Below are positions 29,886 through 64,000 of a stretch of 64,000 bases of DNA, in pieces. The DNA is taken from positions 12,330,011-12,394,010 of the forward strand of contig JACBWW010000020.1 of assembly GCA_020086605.1 (NCBI GenBank), given 5' to 3'. The notes beneath the pieces were generated by a model. It ran no database searches. It saw only the letters and a list, made by a program, of their open reading frames with translations, and was not told the DNA's origin. Source of the stretch: Lanius collurio. Its lineage: Eukaryota > Chordata > Aves > Passeriformes > Laniidae. The position numbers and the translations under genes are program-made. The stretch's first letter is position 1. Each line of letters opens with the position of its first letter.

Positions 29886-30855
29886 TTAACTAAAACTGGT
29901 TTAGACACAGTTCTGTTTTCCAGCTGAACGAAAACAAAGGTTAGCATGAAGCAGCTGCACATCCAGGACGAAGGTTTAAGAAACAAAGATAGTATCATCT
30001 AACTATTTTAAAATTCATACTGTACCAATGAAAGAATCCTTGAGCTGCAGAAAAAGATTTTTGGAAAATAAAGTCTGTTTTTCCCAGAACTACTTTATAA
30101 TGAATACCATGCTCCATGTAAAGAGCTAAACCTAAAAATAATGAAAGCACCAAAATTAAAATCAAACAAGACCACTGATAAGAAGCTCAAAACCAGAAAA
30201 CCTTGTACCATCATGACAAAATACTAGCTGACAGACACAAGGCATATTTGGAAGAAAACAATACCTCTTTCTCACCATGAGGGGAGAAGTAATGGGAGAT
30301 TTTTGCCTTCTCATTCATAAGAGAATTAACTCCTCCTTTTCATTTTTCTTTTTGTTTCTAGAAAAAAATCCCTCCAACTGTAGTTCACTTTCTACATGAA
30401 GCAGGAGAGAAAAGAAAGTGGTGGCAGGAGATTGTTTTCTTCCATCATAACTCTTACAGCTTAATACACACAACAAAACAGGCCCTAGACATCCTGAAGC
30501 TAAACTTCAGGTCATTCACCTCTGCTGTTTGCAGAATTATATGCCAACTCAGGTGAAAAAGGATAAAAAGACAAAATAGTTTCACAGATGATGTGAGCAG
30601 GAGAACACACCAAAGTGGCTCAAATAAAGCTATCTTGCTCAGCTTCGGAGGTCAGTCTTTTCATCTTGGTCTATAGATAGTAAGATTCCCTGGGAATGCT
30701 GCCAGGGAAAATAGAAGCACCAAAGTTTAAAAGAGAAAAATGTTTAAAAAATCACAGCTAGCTAATCACTTCTGAGGCAGAATGCAGAAAACTTTCCCCG
30801 AGAAAATCTTGAAGCAATAATAGACTTAACGAATTTCTAGTTTTTTACCTATTTC
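29886..30855. other. AT-rich flank of the Y-box element
   Basis: Nothing recognisable. The last six bases, TATTTC (30850-30855), form one side of the target duplication of the element that follows. Confidence 0.5.
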
Positions 30856-30951
30856 TGTTGTAGTGCGGGGAATCCTTACAACACCATATAAGACAGCGAT
30901 GGACTTGGAAGGACAGATGAAGCGGTATTTTTGTAGATGTTCAGGGATGAT

Positions 30952-30957
30952 TTTATT
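30952..30957 (-). promoter_or_regulatory. Poly(A) signal in 3' LTR
   Basis: AATAAA on the minus strand about 95 bases before the LTR end. It is conserved in all three LTR copies seen, so it is the likely cleavage signal for the element transcript. Confidence 0.75.
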
Positions 30958-31037
30958 TCTCCAGACGCAGGGCTGGAGTTCCCAAGCAGACTCCTGGGAC
31001 CCTGCTCTCTCCTAGAGCCCCCAGGCACCCCAAACCA

Positions 31038-31047
31038 CCCAATCAGG
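31038..31047 (-). promoter_or_regulatory. Y-box (inverted CCAAT) in 3' LTR
   Basis: On the minus strand this reads CCTGATTGGG, containing CTGATTGG. That is the core of the Y-box element after which YBX proteins were named, and also an NF-Y site. The same motif is present in the 5' LTR and in copy 2. Confidence 0.7.
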
Positions 31048-31062
31048 AACAGGTATGGGGCA

Positions 31063-31068
31063 CACGTG
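31063..31068. promoter_or_regulatory. E-box CACGTG in 3' LTR
   Basis: Palindromic CACGTG in U3, retained at the same place in the other two LTR copies (33178-33183 and 62299-62304). It is a possible site for bHLH-zipper factors of the USF/MYC type; no function is shown. Confidence 0.5.
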
Positions 31069-31153
31069 ACATGGGGACAGGGACAGGGACAGACTGGTAC
31101 CCTTCAGGGTCCCTCCCCCTGGGACTTCAGGGGAGAGGCACCTCCACAATACA

Positions 31154-31162
31154 CCCTTTCTT
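31154..31162 (-). other. Polypurine tract candidate
   Basis: AAGAAAGGG on the minus strand lies five bases upstream of the 3' LTR start, where plus-strand DNA synthesis of an LTR element is primed. It is short, hence moderate confidence. Confidence 0.55.
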
Positions 31163-31373
31163 ATTAAATAAAATAACATGGGAAATAGTTAGATAAACAA
31201 CAAAACAATTTGAAAGGCAAGGAAGCCACTATCTTGAGTCCCCAAATGTCCAAACAGATTTCCTTTGGAGCATCAGAAAGGAGACAGGACTTGAGCACGC
31301 TTCAGATGGAAACTGAGGAAGGGATTTTCCTTTTTGTACTTGTTGGAATCTTAGAAAATGACAGTTAATTTCT

Positions 31374-32456
31374 TCACTCCCTCCTTTTCATCCCCCTCAT
31401 CGGCATTGCAAAGGGATTAATGGCAAATGAAAAGGACTGGTTTTGTGAGGGGAGCCAGAAAGGGAAATTTGGGCTGGGTATATATGGGAGATAAAGGAGC
31501 ATGGGATAAGGAGAGGGGAAAGGATAGGGATTATGGAGATATTGTCCAGCGTATCTACTACCTTTCAAAGGAGCAACCCCAGGGCCTGTAACACGTGCAG
31601 CCTGTGGGCCCTTCCTTCCTTGCACAATTTTAAATTCTAGTCTTTCTCCTTCTTCTAAGCTTGGAACATCACCTTTGGGGTTATTTTTTACAATAGCAGA
31701 TTTATGGACAAAAATACTTTCTCCAGTATCGTTTTTCCCCAAGAAACCGTAATTTTTCTTTACATTATACCACTTTACAGTTCCAAAAACCCTAGCTGCG
31801 ATAACTTTTTCATTTTTCTGAGTTCCTTTGTTCTTGCTTTCAGCTTTGCTTGCTCTCACATCAGAGCTGCCACAGCCAGGACCGCTGGGGTCGGGGCCAC
31901 CAGCACATTCCTGTCGCAGGGTCTGGACTCCTCGGGATTGCGTGTGGGGCCGAGCGCCATTTGGCGCTGTGCTCGCTTCCCCTCTGGAGCTCTGTGTGAC
32001 TGCTCCACGCTTTCCGGGCATTCCCGCAGCTGCACGGCCATGCCCTGTGAGGCGTTCGCGTGTGCGCGGCTTCGTATCGCCGGCACTGCCACTGCTGCTG
32101 TCGTCGGCTGTGTGGCCGTGGGCTAGCACGGCTCCCTTCTCACCCCCATGCCCCTCTGGCTCTGCTCGGCGTGGCTCACCACAGTCGCCATAGCGACTGC
32201 CACAATTGCCGCTGCCTTTCTCACTGTGGGGCTCAGACTGTCGCTCACCACACGGCGCGGGGCGGCCATCACCGGGACACGCCTCGGCCGCCACCGCCCT
32301 CGCCACTGCCTCAGGGCGAACACTACCGGGCCTGCGCCGCCGCGCTGCTCCTGGCTCCACTCGCACTGCCTCCGGTCTCCCCGCCGGCTCTGCTCCCGCC
32401 CTGCCTGGCCTCACTGGCTCTCCCACTCGCAGGAGCTCCCTCGCCGCCGCCTGCAA
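31374..32456 (-). CDS. Element-borne Y-box cold-shock-domain protein
   Basis: A 360-codon open frame. Residues about 1-215 are Arg/Gly/Pro/Ala-rich and probably disordered. Residues about 217-303 form a cold-shock domain: GTVKWYN (225-231), YGF in the RNP1 position (236-238), IFVH in the RNP2 position (248-251), then KNNP (257-260) and VTGPG (289-293), ending GSRYA (299-303). The aromatic and His residues that contact nucleic acid in YBX1 are all present. The NNP-containing insert separates it from LIN28 and bacterial CspA types. The tail (304-360) is rich in Pro, Tyr and Phe and ends MKRRE; it replaces the long basic/acidic-repeat C-terminus of YBX proteins. The listed start is TTG. The first ATG in frame is at 32019-32021 (residue 146) and would give 215 residues. 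Upstream the frame stays open to the stop at 32607-32609 and then continues as the Gag-like segment, so the ancestral product was probably a Gag-cold-shock fusion. Likely role: RNA or single-stranded DNA binding. Expression is unproven. Confidence 0.85.
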   Translation of the reverse strand: MQAAARELLRVGEPVRPGRAGAEPAGRPEAVRVEPGAARRRRPGSVRPEAVARAVAAEACPGDGRPAPCGERQSEPHSEKGSGNCGSRYGDCGEPRRAEPEGHGGEKGAVLAHGHTADDSSSGSAGDTKPRTRERLTGHGRAAAGMPGKRGAVTQSSRGEASTAPNGARPHTQSRGVQTLRQECAGGPDPSGPGCGSSDVRASKAESKNKGTQKNEKVIAARVFGTVKWYNVKKNYGFLGKNDTGESIFVHKSAIVKNNPKGDVPSLEEGERLEFKIVQGRKGPQAARVTGPGVAPLKGSRYAGQYLHNPYPFPSPYPMLLYLPYIPSPNFPFWLPSQNQSFSFAINPFAMPMRGMKRRE

Positions 32457-32560
32457 TGCACTCGGTGCCCACGGCTGGGGCCACGCAGTCTCTGGGGTGG
32501 CAGAGGAGCCCCCTGCAATGCGCGCGCTGCTCGACCACGTGTTCGCTGCTGAAACCTCAG
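31860..32560. other. CpG-rich island inside the element
   Basis: This segment is strikingly rich in C, G and CpG compared with the AT-rich surroundings. It coincides with the Arg/Gly/Pro-rich part of the open frame. It could derive from the CpG-rich 5' exon of a host gene. All the long plus-strand frames here (31704-32126, 31828-32193, 32060-32686, 32148-32552, 32206-32604) are open because stop codons are rare in GC-rich DNA. Confidence 0.8.
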
Positions 32561-32606
32561 CAGGACACAGCCCATATTGCTCAGCAGTCTCTGAAATCAG
32601 GTAATA

Positions 32607-32870
32607 TTAATGGAAATAGTCCTGCATCGGCATATTTTTTGATTCGGACATTAACTGTGTCCAAACATTCTTCCAAAAGTCCTTGATAAGAATCAAATCC
32701 CAAGAAACATAGAAGAAGTTTTTAAACAGCCATGCCAAAAAGTGTCTTAGCTCTTTCTGAGCTTGAACTAAGCTAAAGTCTACATATTGCTGTTCCCGAA
32801 CCTTTTTTAGCTTAAGGTAAATGTCTCTTTGTGGTTTGGACAGCCATGAGTCCTTCCATGAGTCCTCCAT
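32607..32870 (-). pseudogene. Gag matrix-like N-terminal segment (copy 1)
   Basis: Eighty-seven codons begin with ATG at 32868-32870, about 100 bases after the 5' LTR. The frame has an amphipathic, Trp- and Phe-rich pattern: KELRHFLAWLF, then DFWKNVWTQL, then QDYF. The position straight after the primer-binding site, and the motif spacing (Leu/Phe-rich helix, Trp-containing helix, Tyr pair), recall the matrix domain at the start of betaretroviral Gag. This is a resemblance judged by eye. TAA at 32607-32609 ends it. The next codons remain in frame with the cold-shock ORF, so the stop is the only break between the two in this copy. No capsid or nucleocapsid part exists. Confidence 0.6.
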
Positions 32871-32950
32871 CGTTCAGAGATGGGACAGCAAAACGAAAGC
32901 AAGAAGAGATATTGAGAGTTACTCATGAATTATCTTCTCCAGGGATCGTT

Positions 32951-32968
32951 TGCCCACATTCTCCACCA
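32951..32968 (-). other. Primer-binding-site candidate
   Basis: Two bases after the 5' LTR end the minus strand reads TGGTGGAGAATG and onward. A TGG start is expected for pairing with the CCA end of a tRNA primer. I could not assign the tRNA with confidence. The first 12 bases are identical in copy 2. Confidence 0.6.
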
Positions 32969-33066
32969 ATTGTTATAGTACAGGGAATCCTTACAACAAT
33001 ATATAAGACAGCAATGGACACAGAAGGAAGGATGAAGCGGTATTTTTGTAGATGTTCAGGGATGAT

Positions 33067-33072
33067 TTTATT
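33067..33072 (-). promoter_or_regulatory. Poly(A) signal in 5' LTR
   Basis: AATAAA on the minus strand, at the same LTR position as in the other copies. Confidence 0.7.
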
Positions 33073-33152
33073 TCTCCAGCCGCATGGCTGGAATTCCCAA
33101 GCAGACTCCTGGGACCCTGCTCTCTCCTAGAGCCCCCAGGCACCCCAAACCA

Positions 33153-33162
33153 CCCAATCAGG
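33153..33162 (-). promoter_or_regulatory. Y-box (inverted CCAAT) in the promoter LTR
   Basis: CCTGATTGGG on the minus strand in U3 of the 5' LTR, about 80 bases upstream of AATAAA. This is the promoter copy, so it is the site that could respond to NF-Y or to a Y-box protein. Confidence 0.7.
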
Positions 33163-33269
33163 AACAGGTATGGGGCACACGTGACATGGGGACAGGGACA
33201 GGGACAGACTGGTACCCTTCAGGGTCCCTCCCCCTGGGATTTCAGGGGAAAGGCACCTCCACATATTTT

Positions 33270-38633: not shown

Positions 38634-39225
38634 TGTCATGGCTTAACCCCAGCCAGCCACCAAGCCCCACAAAGCCACTCACTCAGTCCCCTACCATTAG
38701 GAACATGGAGAGAATACAAAGGATAAAAGCAGGAAAATCTGTGGATTAAGATAAAGACAGTTTAACAGAAAAAGCAAAAGCAGCACATAAAAGTAAAGCA
38801 AAACAAGGAATTAATTAATTGCTTTTCATGGGCAGGCAGGTGTTCAGCAATCTCCAGGAGAGCAGGGCCCCATCACAGGTAACTGTAACTTGGGAAGACC
38901 AACACCCTTACTTCAAATGTTCTCCCCTTCCCTCTCCTCTCCACTTTACACACCGATCATGATGTCACATGGTCAGGAGTATCCCTTTGGTCAATTTGTG
39001 TCACCTGTCCTGGCTTTGTCTCCACCCAATATCCCAGGCACCCCCAAAATCCTTGCCAATGTATCAGTACAAAAAGCAGAAAAGGCCTTGGCTCTGTGTA
39101 AGCCCTGCTCAGCAATAACAAAAACATCTCTATGTTATCAAGCCAGTGATTAGTAGAAACCCAAAACAGCCCCACACCAGCCACTGTGAGGAATTTTAAC
39201 TCTACTGCAGCCAAAACCAGCGCCA
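38634..39225 (-). mobile_element. Solo LTR, avian ERV family shared with 58 kb
   Basis: The plus strand starts TGTCATGGCTTAACCCCAGC and ends with CAGCCAAAACCAGCGCCA. This matches a widespread bird LTR family whose sense strand begins near TGGTTTCAGCTGG and ends GGTTAAACCATGACA; it therefore lies on the minus strand. Length is about 592 bp. I found no convincing target duplication, so the outer end may be eroded. The frames at 38890-39153 and 38957-39226 belong to the LTR. Confidence 0.82.
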
Positions 39226-45289: not shown

Positions 45290-45895
45290 AGCCAGCAATG
45301 TGTCCTGGTGGCAGGAAAAGCTAACATTGTCCTGGGCTGTGTTAGCAGGAGTGCTGCCAGCAAGTCAAGGCAGGTGACCCTTGTGACCCTTTGCCTCTGC
45401 TCAGCATCAACCAGTCTTGAAGTGCTGGGTCCAGTTTTGTGTTCCCCAGTAGAGAAGAGATAAGGACACGCTGGAGAGACTCTTGTGAAGGACTATCAAA
45501 ATGATGAAGCAACTGGCACATTTCTCATATGAGAAAAGGCTGAGAGATCCTCTTATTGTTGTGTAGATATCCCTGAAGAGGGAGTGTGTAGAGGACAGAG
45601 CCAAGGACAGAGCCAAGGGTTTCAGTGGTGCACTGTGACAGCACCAGAGGCAATGGGCACAAGCTGAAACACAAATTGAACATCAAGAACCACTTTCTCA
45701 TTGTGAGGAGGACTGAGCACTGGCACAGGTTGCCCAGGGAAATTGTGGACTCTGCATCCTTGGCGAAATTCCAAAGTTTCTGAACATCGTCCTGAGCAAC
45801 AGGCTCTGGATGACTGTGCTTGAGAAGCAGCACTGGATAACTTCCAGAGGTCCCTTCCAACCTCATTCATTCATTGACTGTGATTCTGTAGCATT
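45290..45895 (+). mobile_element. CR1 LINE, 3' portion
   Basis: In order: 'gccagcaatgtgtcctgg', 'cattgtcctgggctgtgtta', 'aagtgctgggtccagttttg', 'gaggactgagcactggcaca', 'ggtcccttccaacctcattc', 'gtgattctgtag'. It is a sense-strand copy that is 5'-truncated and ends in the normal CR1 terminus. The overlapping minus frames of up to 113 residues at 45525-45866 are shadows. Confidence 0.9.
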
Positions 45896-58108: not shown

Positions 58109-58680
58109 TGTCACGGTTTAACCCCGCTGGCCAACAAGCCCCCCAAAGCTGCTCACTCACTGTCCCACCTGCAGGATCAGAGGGAGAATCCAAAGGGTAA
58201 AAGGTAAAATACTCATGGGCTGAGATAAAGAAAGTTTAATAGGGAAAAGAAAACCTGCATACACAAGCAAAGCAAAACAAGAAATTAATCCACTGCTTCC
58301 CATGGGCAGGCAGGTGTTCAGCCATTCCCAGGACAGCAGGGCCCCATCACATGTAACACTGACTTGGGAAGACCAATGCCATCACACCAAACATCCCCCC
58401 CCATTGCTCCTTCTTCTCCCCACTTTATACACTGAGCATGATCCCTTACGGTCTGGAATATCCCTTTTGTGAATTCACATCACCTGTCCTGGCTGTGTCT
58501 GCCCCCAACCTCCCACACATCCCCAGTTTGTAATACGTCATTACAAAAAGCAGAAAAGGTCTTGGCTCTGCGTAAATTCTGCTCAGCAATAACAAAATTC
58601 TCTCTATAATCAATCCAAAACATATCCACATACTAGCCACTGTGAAGAAAATTAACTCTAACCCAGCTGAAACCAGCACA
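58109..58680 (-). mobile_element. Solo LTR, same family as 38.6 kb
   Basis: The plus strand starts TGTCACGGTTTAACCCCGC and ends AGCTGAAACCAGCACA; 572 bp. It shares long matching phrases with 38634-39225, such as 'gggcaggcaggtgttcagc', 'agcagggccccatcaca', 'acttgggaagaccaa' and 'gtacaaaaagcagaaaagg'-like text. ATTAAA on the minus strand (58235-58240) fits a poly(A) signal near the end of the sense LTR. Flanks CCACC and CAACT match at only three of five positions, so the duplication is eroded or absent. Confidence 0.85.
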
Positions 58681-62265: not shown

Positions 62266-62320
62266 TGTGGAGGTGGGTCCTTGTCCCTGTCCCCAGGTCA
62301 CGTGTGTCCTATATCTGTTC

Positions 62321-62329
62321 CTGATTGGG
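62321..62329 (+). promoter_or_regulatory. Y-box (inverted CCAAT) in LTR
   Basis: CTGATTGGG in U3, preserved exactly relative to copy 1 although the surrounding LTR has diverged. Confidence 0.7.
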
Positions 62330-62408
62330 TGGTTTGGGTGCCTGGAGCTGGGGTGGGGGAGAAGGTCCAAGAGAGTCTGCTCGGGAACTCCGGCCATGTG
62401 GTTGGAGA

Positions 62409-62414
62409 AATAAA
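62409..62414 (+). promoter_or_regulatory. Poly(A) signal in LTR
   Basis: AATAAA at the position equivalent to copy 1. Confidence 0.7.
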
Positions 62415-62511
62415 ATCATCCTTGAACATCTACAAAAATACCGCTTCATCTGTCCTTCCAACCCCATCGTCGTCATATATATTGTTGCAAGATTCCCCAC
62501 ACTGCAACAAA

Positions 62512-62529
62512 TGGTGGAGAATGCTGGAA
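62512..62529 (+). other. Primer-binding-site candidate
   Basis: TGGTGGAGAATGCTGG begins two bases after the LTR end. The first 12 bases match copy 1, then the copies differ. Confidence 0.6.
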
Positions 62530-62598
62530 AACGATCCCTAGAGAAGATAATTCGTGAGTAACTCTGTATATTTCCTCTTACTTTCATTTTGATGAACG

Positions 62599-62814
62599 AT
62601 GGAGGATTCATGGAAGGACTCATGGCTGTCCGAACCACAAAGAGACATTTACCTTAAGCTAAAAAAGGTTCTGGAACAGCAATATGTAGATTTTAGCTTA
62701 ATTCAAGCTCAGAAAGAACTAAGACACTTTTTGGTATGGCTGTTTAAAAACTCCTTCTATGTTTCTTGGGATTTGATTCTTACCAAGGACTTTTGGAAGA
62801 ATGTTTGGACATAG
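62599..62814 (+). pseudogene. Gag matrix-like N-terminal segment (copy 2)
   Basis: The ATG lies 89 bases after the LTR. The product is nearly identical to copy 1 over its first 71 residues. TAG at 62812-62814 stands where copy 1 has CAG. After it the frame continues through the matching Tyr-rich part until a one-base loss and a TAG near 62876. Copy 2 lacks the TAA that breaks copy 1 at the corresponding site, so that stop arose privately in copy 1. It is non-functional as it stands. Confidence 0.6.
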
Positions 62815-62899
62815 TTAATTTCTGAATCAAAAAATATGCTGATGCAGGACTATTTCCGTGAATATTACCTGATATAGAGGCTGTTGAGCAATATCGGCT

Positions 62900-63620
62900 T
62901 TGTCCTGCTGCTGTATCAGCAGCGAACACGTGGCTGAGCAGCGCGCGCGTTGCAGGGGGCTCCTCCGCCATCATGGGGACCGCGCGGCCCCGGCCGAGAC
63001 CGCCCAGTGAGTTGCGGGCGGTAGCGAGAAAGCTCCCGGGCGTGGGAGAGCCAGCAGTGAGGCCAGGCACGGCGGGAGACGGGGCGGCGGCGAGAGAAGA
63101 GGTGGTGGGAGTAGAGCCAGGAGCGACGCGGCAGTGCGGGCCTGGCGGTGTTCGCCCTGAGGCAGCGGCGAGGGCGGTGGCGGCCGAGGCGCGACCCAGC
63201 GATGGCCGCCCAGCACTGCGTGGTGAGTGACGGTCCTCGCCTCACACCGATAAGGGCGGCGGCGATTGTGGTAGTCGCTGTGGCGACCGTGGTGAAACAC
63301 GCCGAAGAGAGCCAGAGGGGTGTGGGGGCGCGAAGGGAACCGAGCTAGCCCACGGCCACACAGCCGACAGCAGCAGCAGCGGCGGTGCCGGCGGTACGAA
63401 GCCGCGCACACGCAAACGCCTCACAGGGCGCGGCCGTGCAGCCACGCAAATGCCTGGACAGCGTGGAACAGTCACGCGAAACTCGAGAGGGGGAGCGAGC
63501 ATGACACCAAATGCGCCTCCGCCCCACACACGATCCCGAAGAGTCGAGACCCCAAGACAGAAACGCACGGGCGGCCCCGGCCCCGGTGGTCCCGGCTGCA
63601 GCAGCTCCGACGTGAGAAGA
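62900..63620. other. CpG-rich island inside copy 2
   Basis: GC- and CpG-rich counterpart of 31860-32560. The long minus-strand frames here (62780-63070, 62916-63245, 62971-63411, 63242-63631, 63345-63761) are shadows created by low stop-codon density. Confidence 0.8.
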
Positions 63621-64000
63621 AGTGAAAGCAAGAAGAAAAGAACTCGAAAAAATAAAAAGGTTATCGCAACTAGGGTATTTGGAACTGTAAAGTGGTATAA
63701 TGTAAAGAAAAATTATGGTTTCTTGTTGAAAGATGATACTGGAGAAAATATTTTTGTTCATAAACCTGCTATTGTAAAAAAGAACCCCAAAAGTGATGTT
63801 CCAAGCTTAGAAGAAGGAGAAAGAGTAGAATTCAAAATTGTTCAAGGAAGGAAGGGCCCACAGGCTGCATGTGTTACAGGCCTTGGGGGTGCCCCTGTGA
63901 AAGGCAGTAGATATGTTAGACAATATCCCCATAATCCCTGTTCTTTCCCCTATCACACTTTCCCCTTTTATCCCATGTCCCTTTATCCCCCATATATGCC
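62973..64000 (+). pseudogene. Y-box cold-shock-domain reading frame (copy 2)
   Basis: The frame begins at ATG 62973-62975. It runs through the Arg/Gly/Pro-rich part to TGA at 63228-63230, where copy 1 has CGA (a CpG-type change). It then stays open to the window end. The cold-shock domain starts near 63658: GTVKWYN, YGF, IFVH, VEFKIVQG and GSRY are all present, so the binding residues are intact. Against copy 1 I count about 22 base differences in about 249 (8 silent, 14 amino-acid changing). The tail is Pro/Tyr/Phe-rich as in copy 1 but differs more. An ATG downstream of the TGA (63427 in this frame's numbering by eye) could still give a cold-shock product; the end of the gene is outside the window. 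Confidence 0.85.

What the first reader, a model, noticed from the sequence alone, without database searches (positions are those of the whole stretch)
30856..33263. An LTR retroelement that has captured a host Y-box cold-shock gene
Two 293-bp LTRs with a near-perfect 6-bp target duplication enclose a Gag-like start and a Y-box cold-shock domain with all key aromatic/His residues, and no pol or env. Known from biology: acutely transforming retroviruses make gag-host-gene fusions lacking pol and env. Inference: this is a germ-line relative of that process in a bird, where a nucleic-acid-binding protein that packages mRNA was captured. I do not recall this being described, but could not search.
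Basis: partly seen in the sequence, partly recalled or inferred. Interest (0 to 1): 0.93.

Follow-up and report, generated by a model that had tools for sequence, protein, structure and literature searches.

The report
Jumping element carrying Y-box RNA-binding gene
In what is probably a songbird genome, a retrovirus-like jumping element has taken up part of a host RNA-binding (Y-box) gene, copied the joined gene many times around the genome, and shows signs that the borrowed protein part was kept working while the element spread.

Summary
Confirmed and enlarged. Window 30856-33263 is a complete LTR element (sense minus): 293-bp LTRs 95% identical, 5/6 target duplication, primer-binding site, one broken gene, no pol or env found. 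The gene holds a true Y-box cold-shock domain (CSD E 2.4e-20; 49 of 88 residues as YB-1). A second copy lies at 62266-64000. The window's own 1.1-Gb genome gives 3281 (LTR) and 1042 (CSD+tail) first-look candidates, 40 scored each. Of 30 loci picked by the N-terminal domain, 29 also carry the Y-box part; 6 keep a ~505-codon frame across all parts. Six other insertions have perfect, different 6-bp duplications. In the CSD, variants shared by many copies are mostly silent, private ones mostly not (p 0.005); 11 control tests show no such shift below 0.05. A crow has a relative. The 'Gag' label finds no profile support; no pol-bearing parent was seen. Best mechanism (inferred): a non-autonomous element whose fusion protein binds and packages its own RNA with borrowed polymerase. 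New variant of a known kind (ERV host-gene capture).

The parts
32971..33263 (-). 5' LTR of copy 1 (sense strand minus)
   Evidence: 95% identical to 30856-31148; matches elsewhere in the genome
30856..31148 (-). 3' LTR of copy 1
30850..30855 (.). target-site duplication, left (TATTTC)
   Evidence: 5 of 6 with the right copy
33264..33269 (.). target-site duplication, right (TATTTT)
32951..32968 (-). primer-binding site, 2 nt after the LTR, 16 of 18 to tRNA-Ala(AGC) (tRNA sequences recalled); 15 of 18 in copy 2
32610..32870 (-). N-terminal domain of the fusion gene ('Gag-like' by position), from ATG to an in-frame stop in this copy
   Evidence: 50 deduplicated copies compared; no significant Pfam or PDB match
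31830..32606 (-). GC-rich (67%) coding block, CpG o/e 0.76; its first ~15 codons still belong to the conserved N-terminal domain of relatives
31545..31814 (-). Y-box homologous segment (Pfam CSD core 31584-31784)
31374..31544 (-). Pro/Phe/Tyr-rich C-terminal tail with stop, also present in the crow relative
31149..31373 (-). 3' non-coding part with a purine run (AAGAAAGGG, about 31154-31162) next to the 3' LTR
62266..62509 (+). 5' LTR of copy 2 (short form of the LTR)
62599..64000 (+). copy 2: N-terminal domain, GC-rich block, Y-box segment (about 63650-63930) and start of the tail; frame broken; runs off the window

Best explanation
A non-autonomous, high-copy LTR retroelement family of a (probably passerine) bird. 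Its one recognisable gene is a ~505-codon fusion: a conserved ~100-residue N-terminal domain, a GC-rich low-complexity block, a Y-box cold-shock domain of host type, and a Pro/Phe/Tyr-rich tail. SHOWN: structure, mobility (different target duplications), linkage of the parts in many copies, and uninterrupted frames in several. SUPPORTED by statistics: purifying selection on the cold-shock part during spread (and, less firmly, on the N-terminal and GC-rich parts). INFERRED: capture through a host Y-box mRNA, and that the fusion protein is the element's own RNA-binding or packaging protein. The cold-shock domain would coat the element's RNA and the N-terminal domain would bring that complex to particles of a helper retroelement, which supplies reverse transcriptase and integrase in trans.
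For: Two copies in the window joined over LTR and internal parts. Genome: LTR query 3281 first-look candidates, the 40 scored 89-100% identical; CSD+tail query 1042 candidates, the 40 scored 90-100%. 23 of 30 CSD-picked loci show an LTR on both sides within the fetched stretch; 6 have a perfect and different 6-bp TSD, 2 have 5/6. 29 of 30 loci picked by the N-terminal domain carry the Y-box part. 15 of 150 scored N-terminal matches sit in an open frame of 499-518 codons; in 6 of the 30 loci read that frame spans all parts. Selection: CSD nonsynonymous+stop 55/68 in private variants vs 8/18 in variants shared by 5 or more copies, p 0.005 (CpG-free 53/65 vs 8/18, p 0.005); N-terminal 42/62 vs 4/12, p 0.047; GC-rich 88/121 vs 64/109, p 0.027. 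None of 11 control tests (two wrong frames of four coding pieces, three frames of the 3' non-coding part) fell below 0.05. Among six long-frame copies pooled pairwise dN/dS is 0.10 (N-terminal) and 0.33 (CSD), no significance test. Crow protein 44% identical over 218 residues through CSD and tail. Precedent: MMTV Gag associates with YB-1, and YB-1 knockdown is reported to lower particle output (PMC4486188, passages).
Against: No helper or pol-bearing parent was identified. The N-terminal domain matches no Gag, matrix or other family significantly, its AlphaFold model is weak (pLDDT 62), and the fold search never ran. The N-terminal selection test is marginal (p 0.047, 0.051 under the stop rule, CpG-free 0.23), and an earlier, unfiltered set of 31 showed none (p 0.75). 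The tail shows no purifying selection within this genome (11/13 replacement among shared variants; dN/dS 1.75 to the window copy). The 3' non-coding part is as conserved as the CSD (mean p-distance 0.077 vs 0.085), so raw conservation proves nothing. Most copies read have broken frames in the GC-rich block. RNA binding, packaging and expression are untested.
Confidence: 0.6

Rival explanations
1. Passenger: the Y-box segment was transduced by chance and rides along; only LTR, leader and 3' end matter for mobility.
For: Many copies have broken frames: free of stop and frameshift are GC-rich block 9 of 48, CSD 38 of 56, N-terminal 31 of 50, tail 36 of 56. The 3' non-coding part is equally conserved. 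The tail shows no constraint.
Against: Shared variants are enriched for silent changes in the CSD in the correct frame only; dN/dS 0.10 and 0.33 among long-frame copies; ~505-codon frames persist in several copies; a crow relative keeps CSD and tail at 44% identity.
Confidence: 0.15
2. The fusion protein serves the element by regulating translation, stability or silencing-evasion of its RNA in germ cells (as Y-box proteins do for mRNA), not by packaging.
For: Y-box proteins package and mask germ-cell mRNA (recalled); constraint is clearest on the RNA-binding domain.
Against: No expression data; nothing in the sequence tells this apart from packaging.
Confidence: 0.2
3. Domesticated: the host uses the protein and the selection signal comes from one or a few host-serving copies.
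For: Uninterrupted frames exist.
Against: The signal lies in variants shared by many dispersed insertions, which host use of single copies would not give.
Confidence: 0.05
4. Not an LTR element but a Y-box gene that happens to lie between repeats.
For: None beyond the single locus.
Against: Second copy in the window, many complete copies, several with different target duplications.
Confidence: 0.01

Closest known systems
Crocodilian ERVs with captured KIT-ligand (CrocERV29) and nectin3 (CrocERV31) (PMC4299795: abstract, outline and passages seen)
   Same: Endogenous LTR elements carrying a host mRNA-derived gene, multi-copy, with purifying selection reported on the captured frame
   Different: There the captured gene is a ligand (no ERV domain lost) or an adhesion protein (at the expense of env); here it is a nucleic-acid-binding domain fused into the one recognisable gene of a 2.4-kb element without pol or env
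Acutely transforming retroviruses (recalled)
   Same: Host sequence fused behind a 5' viral coding start, pol and env lost, helper needed
   Different: Those are single recent isolates with oncogenes; this is an old germ-line family of many copies, and its 5' part is not recognisable as Gag
Songbird LTR family TguERVL2 with an odd extra domain in the gag frame (PMC6523648: passages)
   Same: Songbird LTR element with unexpected sequence in the first frame
   Different: That element keeps GAG, AP, RT and RH domains and its odd match is a weak herpesvirus glycoprotein C similarity
Vertebrate Y-box proteins (YBX1/YBX2)
   Same: Cold-shock domain with Y-box-type flanks, 49 of 88 residues identical to zebrafish YB-1
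   Different: A Pro/Phe/Tyr-rich tail instead of the YB-1 C-terminal domain (the latter recalled); 29 residues changed in common in both window copies
MMTV use of host YB-1 in assembly (PMC4486188: passages)
   Same: Retrovirus assembly helped by a Y-box protein
   Different: Host protein recruited, not encoded by the virus

Membership tests
LTR retroelement (ERV-like) | Paired LTRs with TG..CA ends | tested here: met
LTR retroelement (ERV-like) | Target-site duplication of fixed length | tested here: met
   6-bp, perfect in 6 of 23 two-LTR loci and 5/6 in 2 (window copy among them); the other 15 gave 4/6 or less or none, many with LTR edges unclear or cut by the stretch; edges were slid by up to 8 bases with TG and CA required
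LTR retroelement (ERV-like) | Primer-binding site next to the 5' LTR | tested here: met
   16/18 and 15/18 to tRNA-Ala(AGC) among 15 recalled tRNAs, next best 11/18; letters of the tRNAs not checked against a database
LTR retroelement (ERV-like) | pol (reverse transcriptase, integrase) | tested here: not met
   No such domain in three sense pieces or six other frames of the internal part; it can only be a non-autonomous member
Retroviral Gag protein (matrix, capsid, nucleocapsid) | Matrix/capsid profile or zinc knuckles | tested here: not met
   No Pfam match in N-terminal or middle part (only a GyrI-like match at 0.029 under its cut-off), no relevant PDB match of the profile; fold comparison never ran
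Y-box protein family | Y-box-type cold-shock domain with aromatic/His RNA contacts | tested here: met
   (which residues contact RNA is recalled)
Y-box protein family | Long C-terminal domain of alternating basic/acidic clusters (recalled) | tested here: not met
   57-codon Pro/Phe/Tyr-rich tail with stop instead
Acutely transforming retrovirus | gag-oncogene fusion with transforming activity | not testable with these tools
   Gag part unproven; no activity data

The most novel reading that the evidence does not exclude
The host cold-shock domain has become the element's own nucleocapsid: a capsid-type gene whose zinc-knuckle RNA-binding part was replaced by a Y-box domain. The resulting lineage has spread through passerine genomes over millions of years as a parasite of pol-bearing retroelements.
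Probability: 0.33. Interest if true: 0.92.

Novelty: new variant of a known kind. Interest (0 to 1): 0.8.

Why it matters
Host genes caught by retroviruses are usually seen as accidents or oncogenes. Here a captured RNA-binding protein part appears to have become a working, selected part of a very successful mobile element. That makes it testable whether a selfish element can swap in a host RNA-binding domain for its own packaging function, and it offers a natural system for how non-autonomous LTR elements are packaged. It also warns that some Y-box gene models in bird annotations may be mobile-element genes.

Tried and rejected
Expected a pol-bearing parent by searching with the N-terminal relative P0006: 29 of the 30 loci read carry the Y-box part and one (L066) does not show it in its stretch; none of the 30 was scanned for pol, and 120 scored and 996 unscored candidates were not read, so a parent is not excluded. 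P0006 itself turned out to resemble a diverged subfamily (L043), so my early idea that it showed the uncaptured Gag was dropped. A pair of LTRs 4.1 kb apart (L042) held no gene by eye in its listed frames, and four of them had no Pfam match. IMG/VR scans gave nothing for the N-terminal domain and one distant 35% match for the CSD. Rfam found nothing in the window at gathering scores. Raw conservation as proof of selection was rejected because the 3' non-coding part is equally conserved. The two-copy dN/dS test was only borderline for the CSD (0.46, p 0.059) and its frame+1 value was also 0.46, so it is not relied on; the pooled frame-0 contrast (p 1.4e-4) includes the CpG-rich block and is not relied on either. 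The neutral-decay stop simulation was weak (P of no stop 0.11-0.44). The models of the N-terminal domain (pLDDT 62) and CSD+tail (48) are too poor to rest anything on. Literature searches for a Y-box or cold-shock gene in an endogenous retrovirus or LTR element (PMC open-licence texts only) listed no title or abstract start describing one; Repbase and Dfam could not be searched.
Full report
WHAT IS THERE. The element of the finding occupies 30856-33263 and reads on the minus strand. Its LTRs (32971-33263 and 30856-31148) are 293 bp long and 95% identical, with K2P 0.057. Six-base flanks TATTTC/TATTTT match at 5 of 6. Two bases inside the 5' LTR lies a primer-binding site, 16 of 18 to tRNA-Ala(AGC) and 15 of 18 in the second copy; the best other of 15 recalled tRNAs reached 11. 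A purine run stands before the 3' LTR. The internal part holds one recognisable gene: an N-terminal domain of about 100 residues, a GC-rich block (67% GC, CpG o/e 0.76 against 0.13 in the flank), a cold-shock domain, and a Pro/Phe/Tyr-rich tail. In the window copy the gene is broken by a stop near the end of the N-terminal domain. No Gag, pol or env family was hit in three sense pieces or six other frames of the internal part; shorter frames were not scanned.

THE COLD-SHOCK DOMAIN IS Y-BOX. Pfam CSD E 2.4e-20, above the curated cut-off. The best PDB matches are Y-box proteins (YB-1 up to 1e-30, YB-2 about 1e-29), well ahead of bacterial cold-shock proteins (about 1e-13) and Lin28 (about 1e-8). 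It aligns with YB-1 without gaps, 49 of 88 residues identical for each window copy. The two copies share 74 of 88 with each other and 29 changes from YB-1 in common, which points to one capture and a long common history. Which Y-box paralogue was the donor is not resolved; the host genes were not located. The CpG-rich block followed by an AT-richer cold-shock part is what a Y-box mRNA with its first exon would give (inference from recalled gene structure).

IT IS A FAMILY. A blastn of the window against itself found a second copy at 62266-64000 on the plus strand, about 85% identical over LTR and internal parts alike. The genome that holds the window (G000, 1.097 Gb, no name given) yielded 3281 first-look candidates with the LTR; the 40 that were scored are 89-100% identical. 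The 456-bp CSD+tail gave 1042 candidates; the 40 scored are 90-100% identical. First-look candidates are not confirmed copies, so several hundred to a thousand Y-box copies is an estimate. Of 30 loci fetched, 23 show an LTR on both sides in the 3.5-kb stretch. Six have perfect 6-bp duplications, all different (CTCTAC, GTTAAG, TCTCCT, CAACAC, GAAAAT, GGTTGA); two have 5/6 (the window copy is one); the other 15 have 4/6 or less or none, many of them cut by the stretch or with unclear LTR edges. LTR-LTR K2P runs from 0.017 to 0.140; with a recalled bird rate of about 2-3.5e-9 per site and year this spans very roughly 2 to 35 million years, the window copy about 8-14.

LINKAGE WITHOUT CHOOSING BY THE COLD-SHOCK DOMAIN. 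I searched with P0006, an unnamed ENA protein 72% identical to the N-terminal domain. 150 of 1146 candidates were scored, matching at 65-79%. Of the 30 best loci fetched, 29 also carry the Y-box part; one (L066) lacks it in the stretch, and one of the 29 (L043) is a diverged subfamily with CSD 74% identical. Two of the 30 (L056, L059) are nearly identical and one (L058) is a locus already in the first set. Fifteen of 150 matches lie in an open frame of 499-518 codons. In 6 of the 30 loci read, that frame covers N-terminal domain, GC-rich block, CSD and tail; the other nine I know only by frame length. So the parts form one fusion gene, and intact frames exist.

SELECTION. Sixty-one sequences (30+30 loci and window copy 2; window copy 1 is L010) were reduced to 59 by dropping L058 and L059. 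Per piece, copies with 85% coverage or less, or 78% identity or less, were dropped, leaving 50 N-terminal, 48 GC-rich, 56 CSD, 56 tail, 56 3' non-coding. Variants found in one copy approximate neutral decay after insertion; variants shared by five or more reflect the replicating lineages. CSD: replacement-or-stop 55 of 68 private vs 8 of 18 shared (p 0.005; CpG-free 53 of 65 vs 8 of 18, p 0.005). N-terminal: 42 of 62 vs 4 of 12 (p 0.047; CpG-free p 0.23). GC-rich: 88 of 121 vs 64 of 109 (p 0.027; CpG-free p 0.039). Tail: 32 of 47 vs 11 of 13 (no shift, p 0.31). The 11 controls (two wrong frames of each of four coding pieces and three frames of the 3' non-coding part) gave no p below 0.05; the lowest was 0.084, for GC-rich frame +1; under the control script's slightly different stop rule the N-terminal value is 0.051. 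Only the CSD result survives correction for four tests. Copies share ancestry, so the p-values are guides. Among six long-frame copies (chosen for lacking stops) pooled pairwise dN/dS is 0.10 for the N-terminal domain, 0.33 CSD, 0.61 GC-rich, 0.75 tail; against the window copy 0.28, 0.47, 0.69 and 1.75; no test was made. An earlier test with 31 sequences chosen by CSD similarity and without the coverage filter gave the CSD shift (p 0.035) but none for the N-terminal domain (0.75), GC-rich block (0.11) or tail (1). Many copies are decayed: free of stop and frameshift are 31 of 50 (N-terminal), 9 of 48 (GC-rich), 38 of 56 (CSD), 36 of 56 (tail).

RELATIVES. A profile of the two window CSD+tail segments found an uncharacterised protein of Corvus moneduloides (P0007, E 3.5e-44) and unnamed ENA proteins (P0008, P0012, P0016) that share the tail as well. 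P0007 matches the window frame at 44% over 218 residues, from the end of the GC-rich block to the tail. Of 361 hits 120 were listed, and most of those look like ordinary cold-shock proteins. The named bird relatives are passerines (the crow; a Lamprotornis Y-box fragment, P0014), which with the genome size supports a passerine host; the species is not known to me. A narrower search had given only five cold-shock proteins without sign of the element.

HOW IT MOST LIKELY WORKS. Without pol the element must borrow reverse transcriptase and integrase. It nevertheless keeps a protein with a conserved N-terminal domain and a selected RNA-binding domain. The simplest reading is a packaging or RNP protein acting on the element's own RNA. 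[quoted passage not shown] 2014, which is not held). An HIV paper reports YB-1 as a cofactor of early and late steps (PMC6040738, start of abstract in the listing). Whether the N-terminal domain is a matrix-like Gag part is open: no significant profile match, a weak all-helical model, and the fold search never ran.

NOVELTY. ERV capture of host genes is known: crocodilian ERVs hold KIT-ligand and nectin3 with purifying selection (PMC4299795, abstract and passages). A Y-box domain inside the gene of a high-copy LTR family was not described in the titles and abstract starts listed by my searches. Three bird LTR/ERV papers do not contain the word Y-box in the main text and two of them, where I also asked, not cold shock (term searches only). 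Repbase and Dfam were out of reach, so the repeat may already be catalogued without its gene being recognised.

Noticed in passing
window 62554-62559: Copy 2 has a splice-donor-like GTGAGT in its leader, between primer-binding site and gene start, as in many retroviruses (recalled); the motif is not present at that place in copy 1.
   Followed up: no
window 38634-39133 and 58109-58607: A second dispersed repeat, two direct copies about 77% identical over 510 aligned bases; not identified.
   Followed up: no
window 45525-45866 (minus): A 113-codon frame that resembles translated avian CR1-type repeat sequence (resemblance recalled, not tested).
   Followed up: no
L056 and L059 (G000 C18 near 4.77 Mb and C19 near 4.76 Mb): Nearly identical element loci at similar positions on two contigs, perhaps haplotypes assembled apart or a duplicated stretch.
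   Followed up: partly
L043: Diverged subfamily: N-terminal domain 84% identical, different GC-rich block, an AT-rich stretch before the Y-box part, CSD 74% identical.
   Followed up: partly
P0014 (Lamprotornis superbus, 99 aa): A Y-box fragment close to YB-1, with YB-1-like residues after the CSD (recalled); may be a processed copy of the host gene.
   Followed up: no
family LTRs: Two LTR forms, a full 293-bp one and one lacking about 50 bp at the 5' end; all six loci with ~505-codon frames carry the short form.
   Followed up: partly
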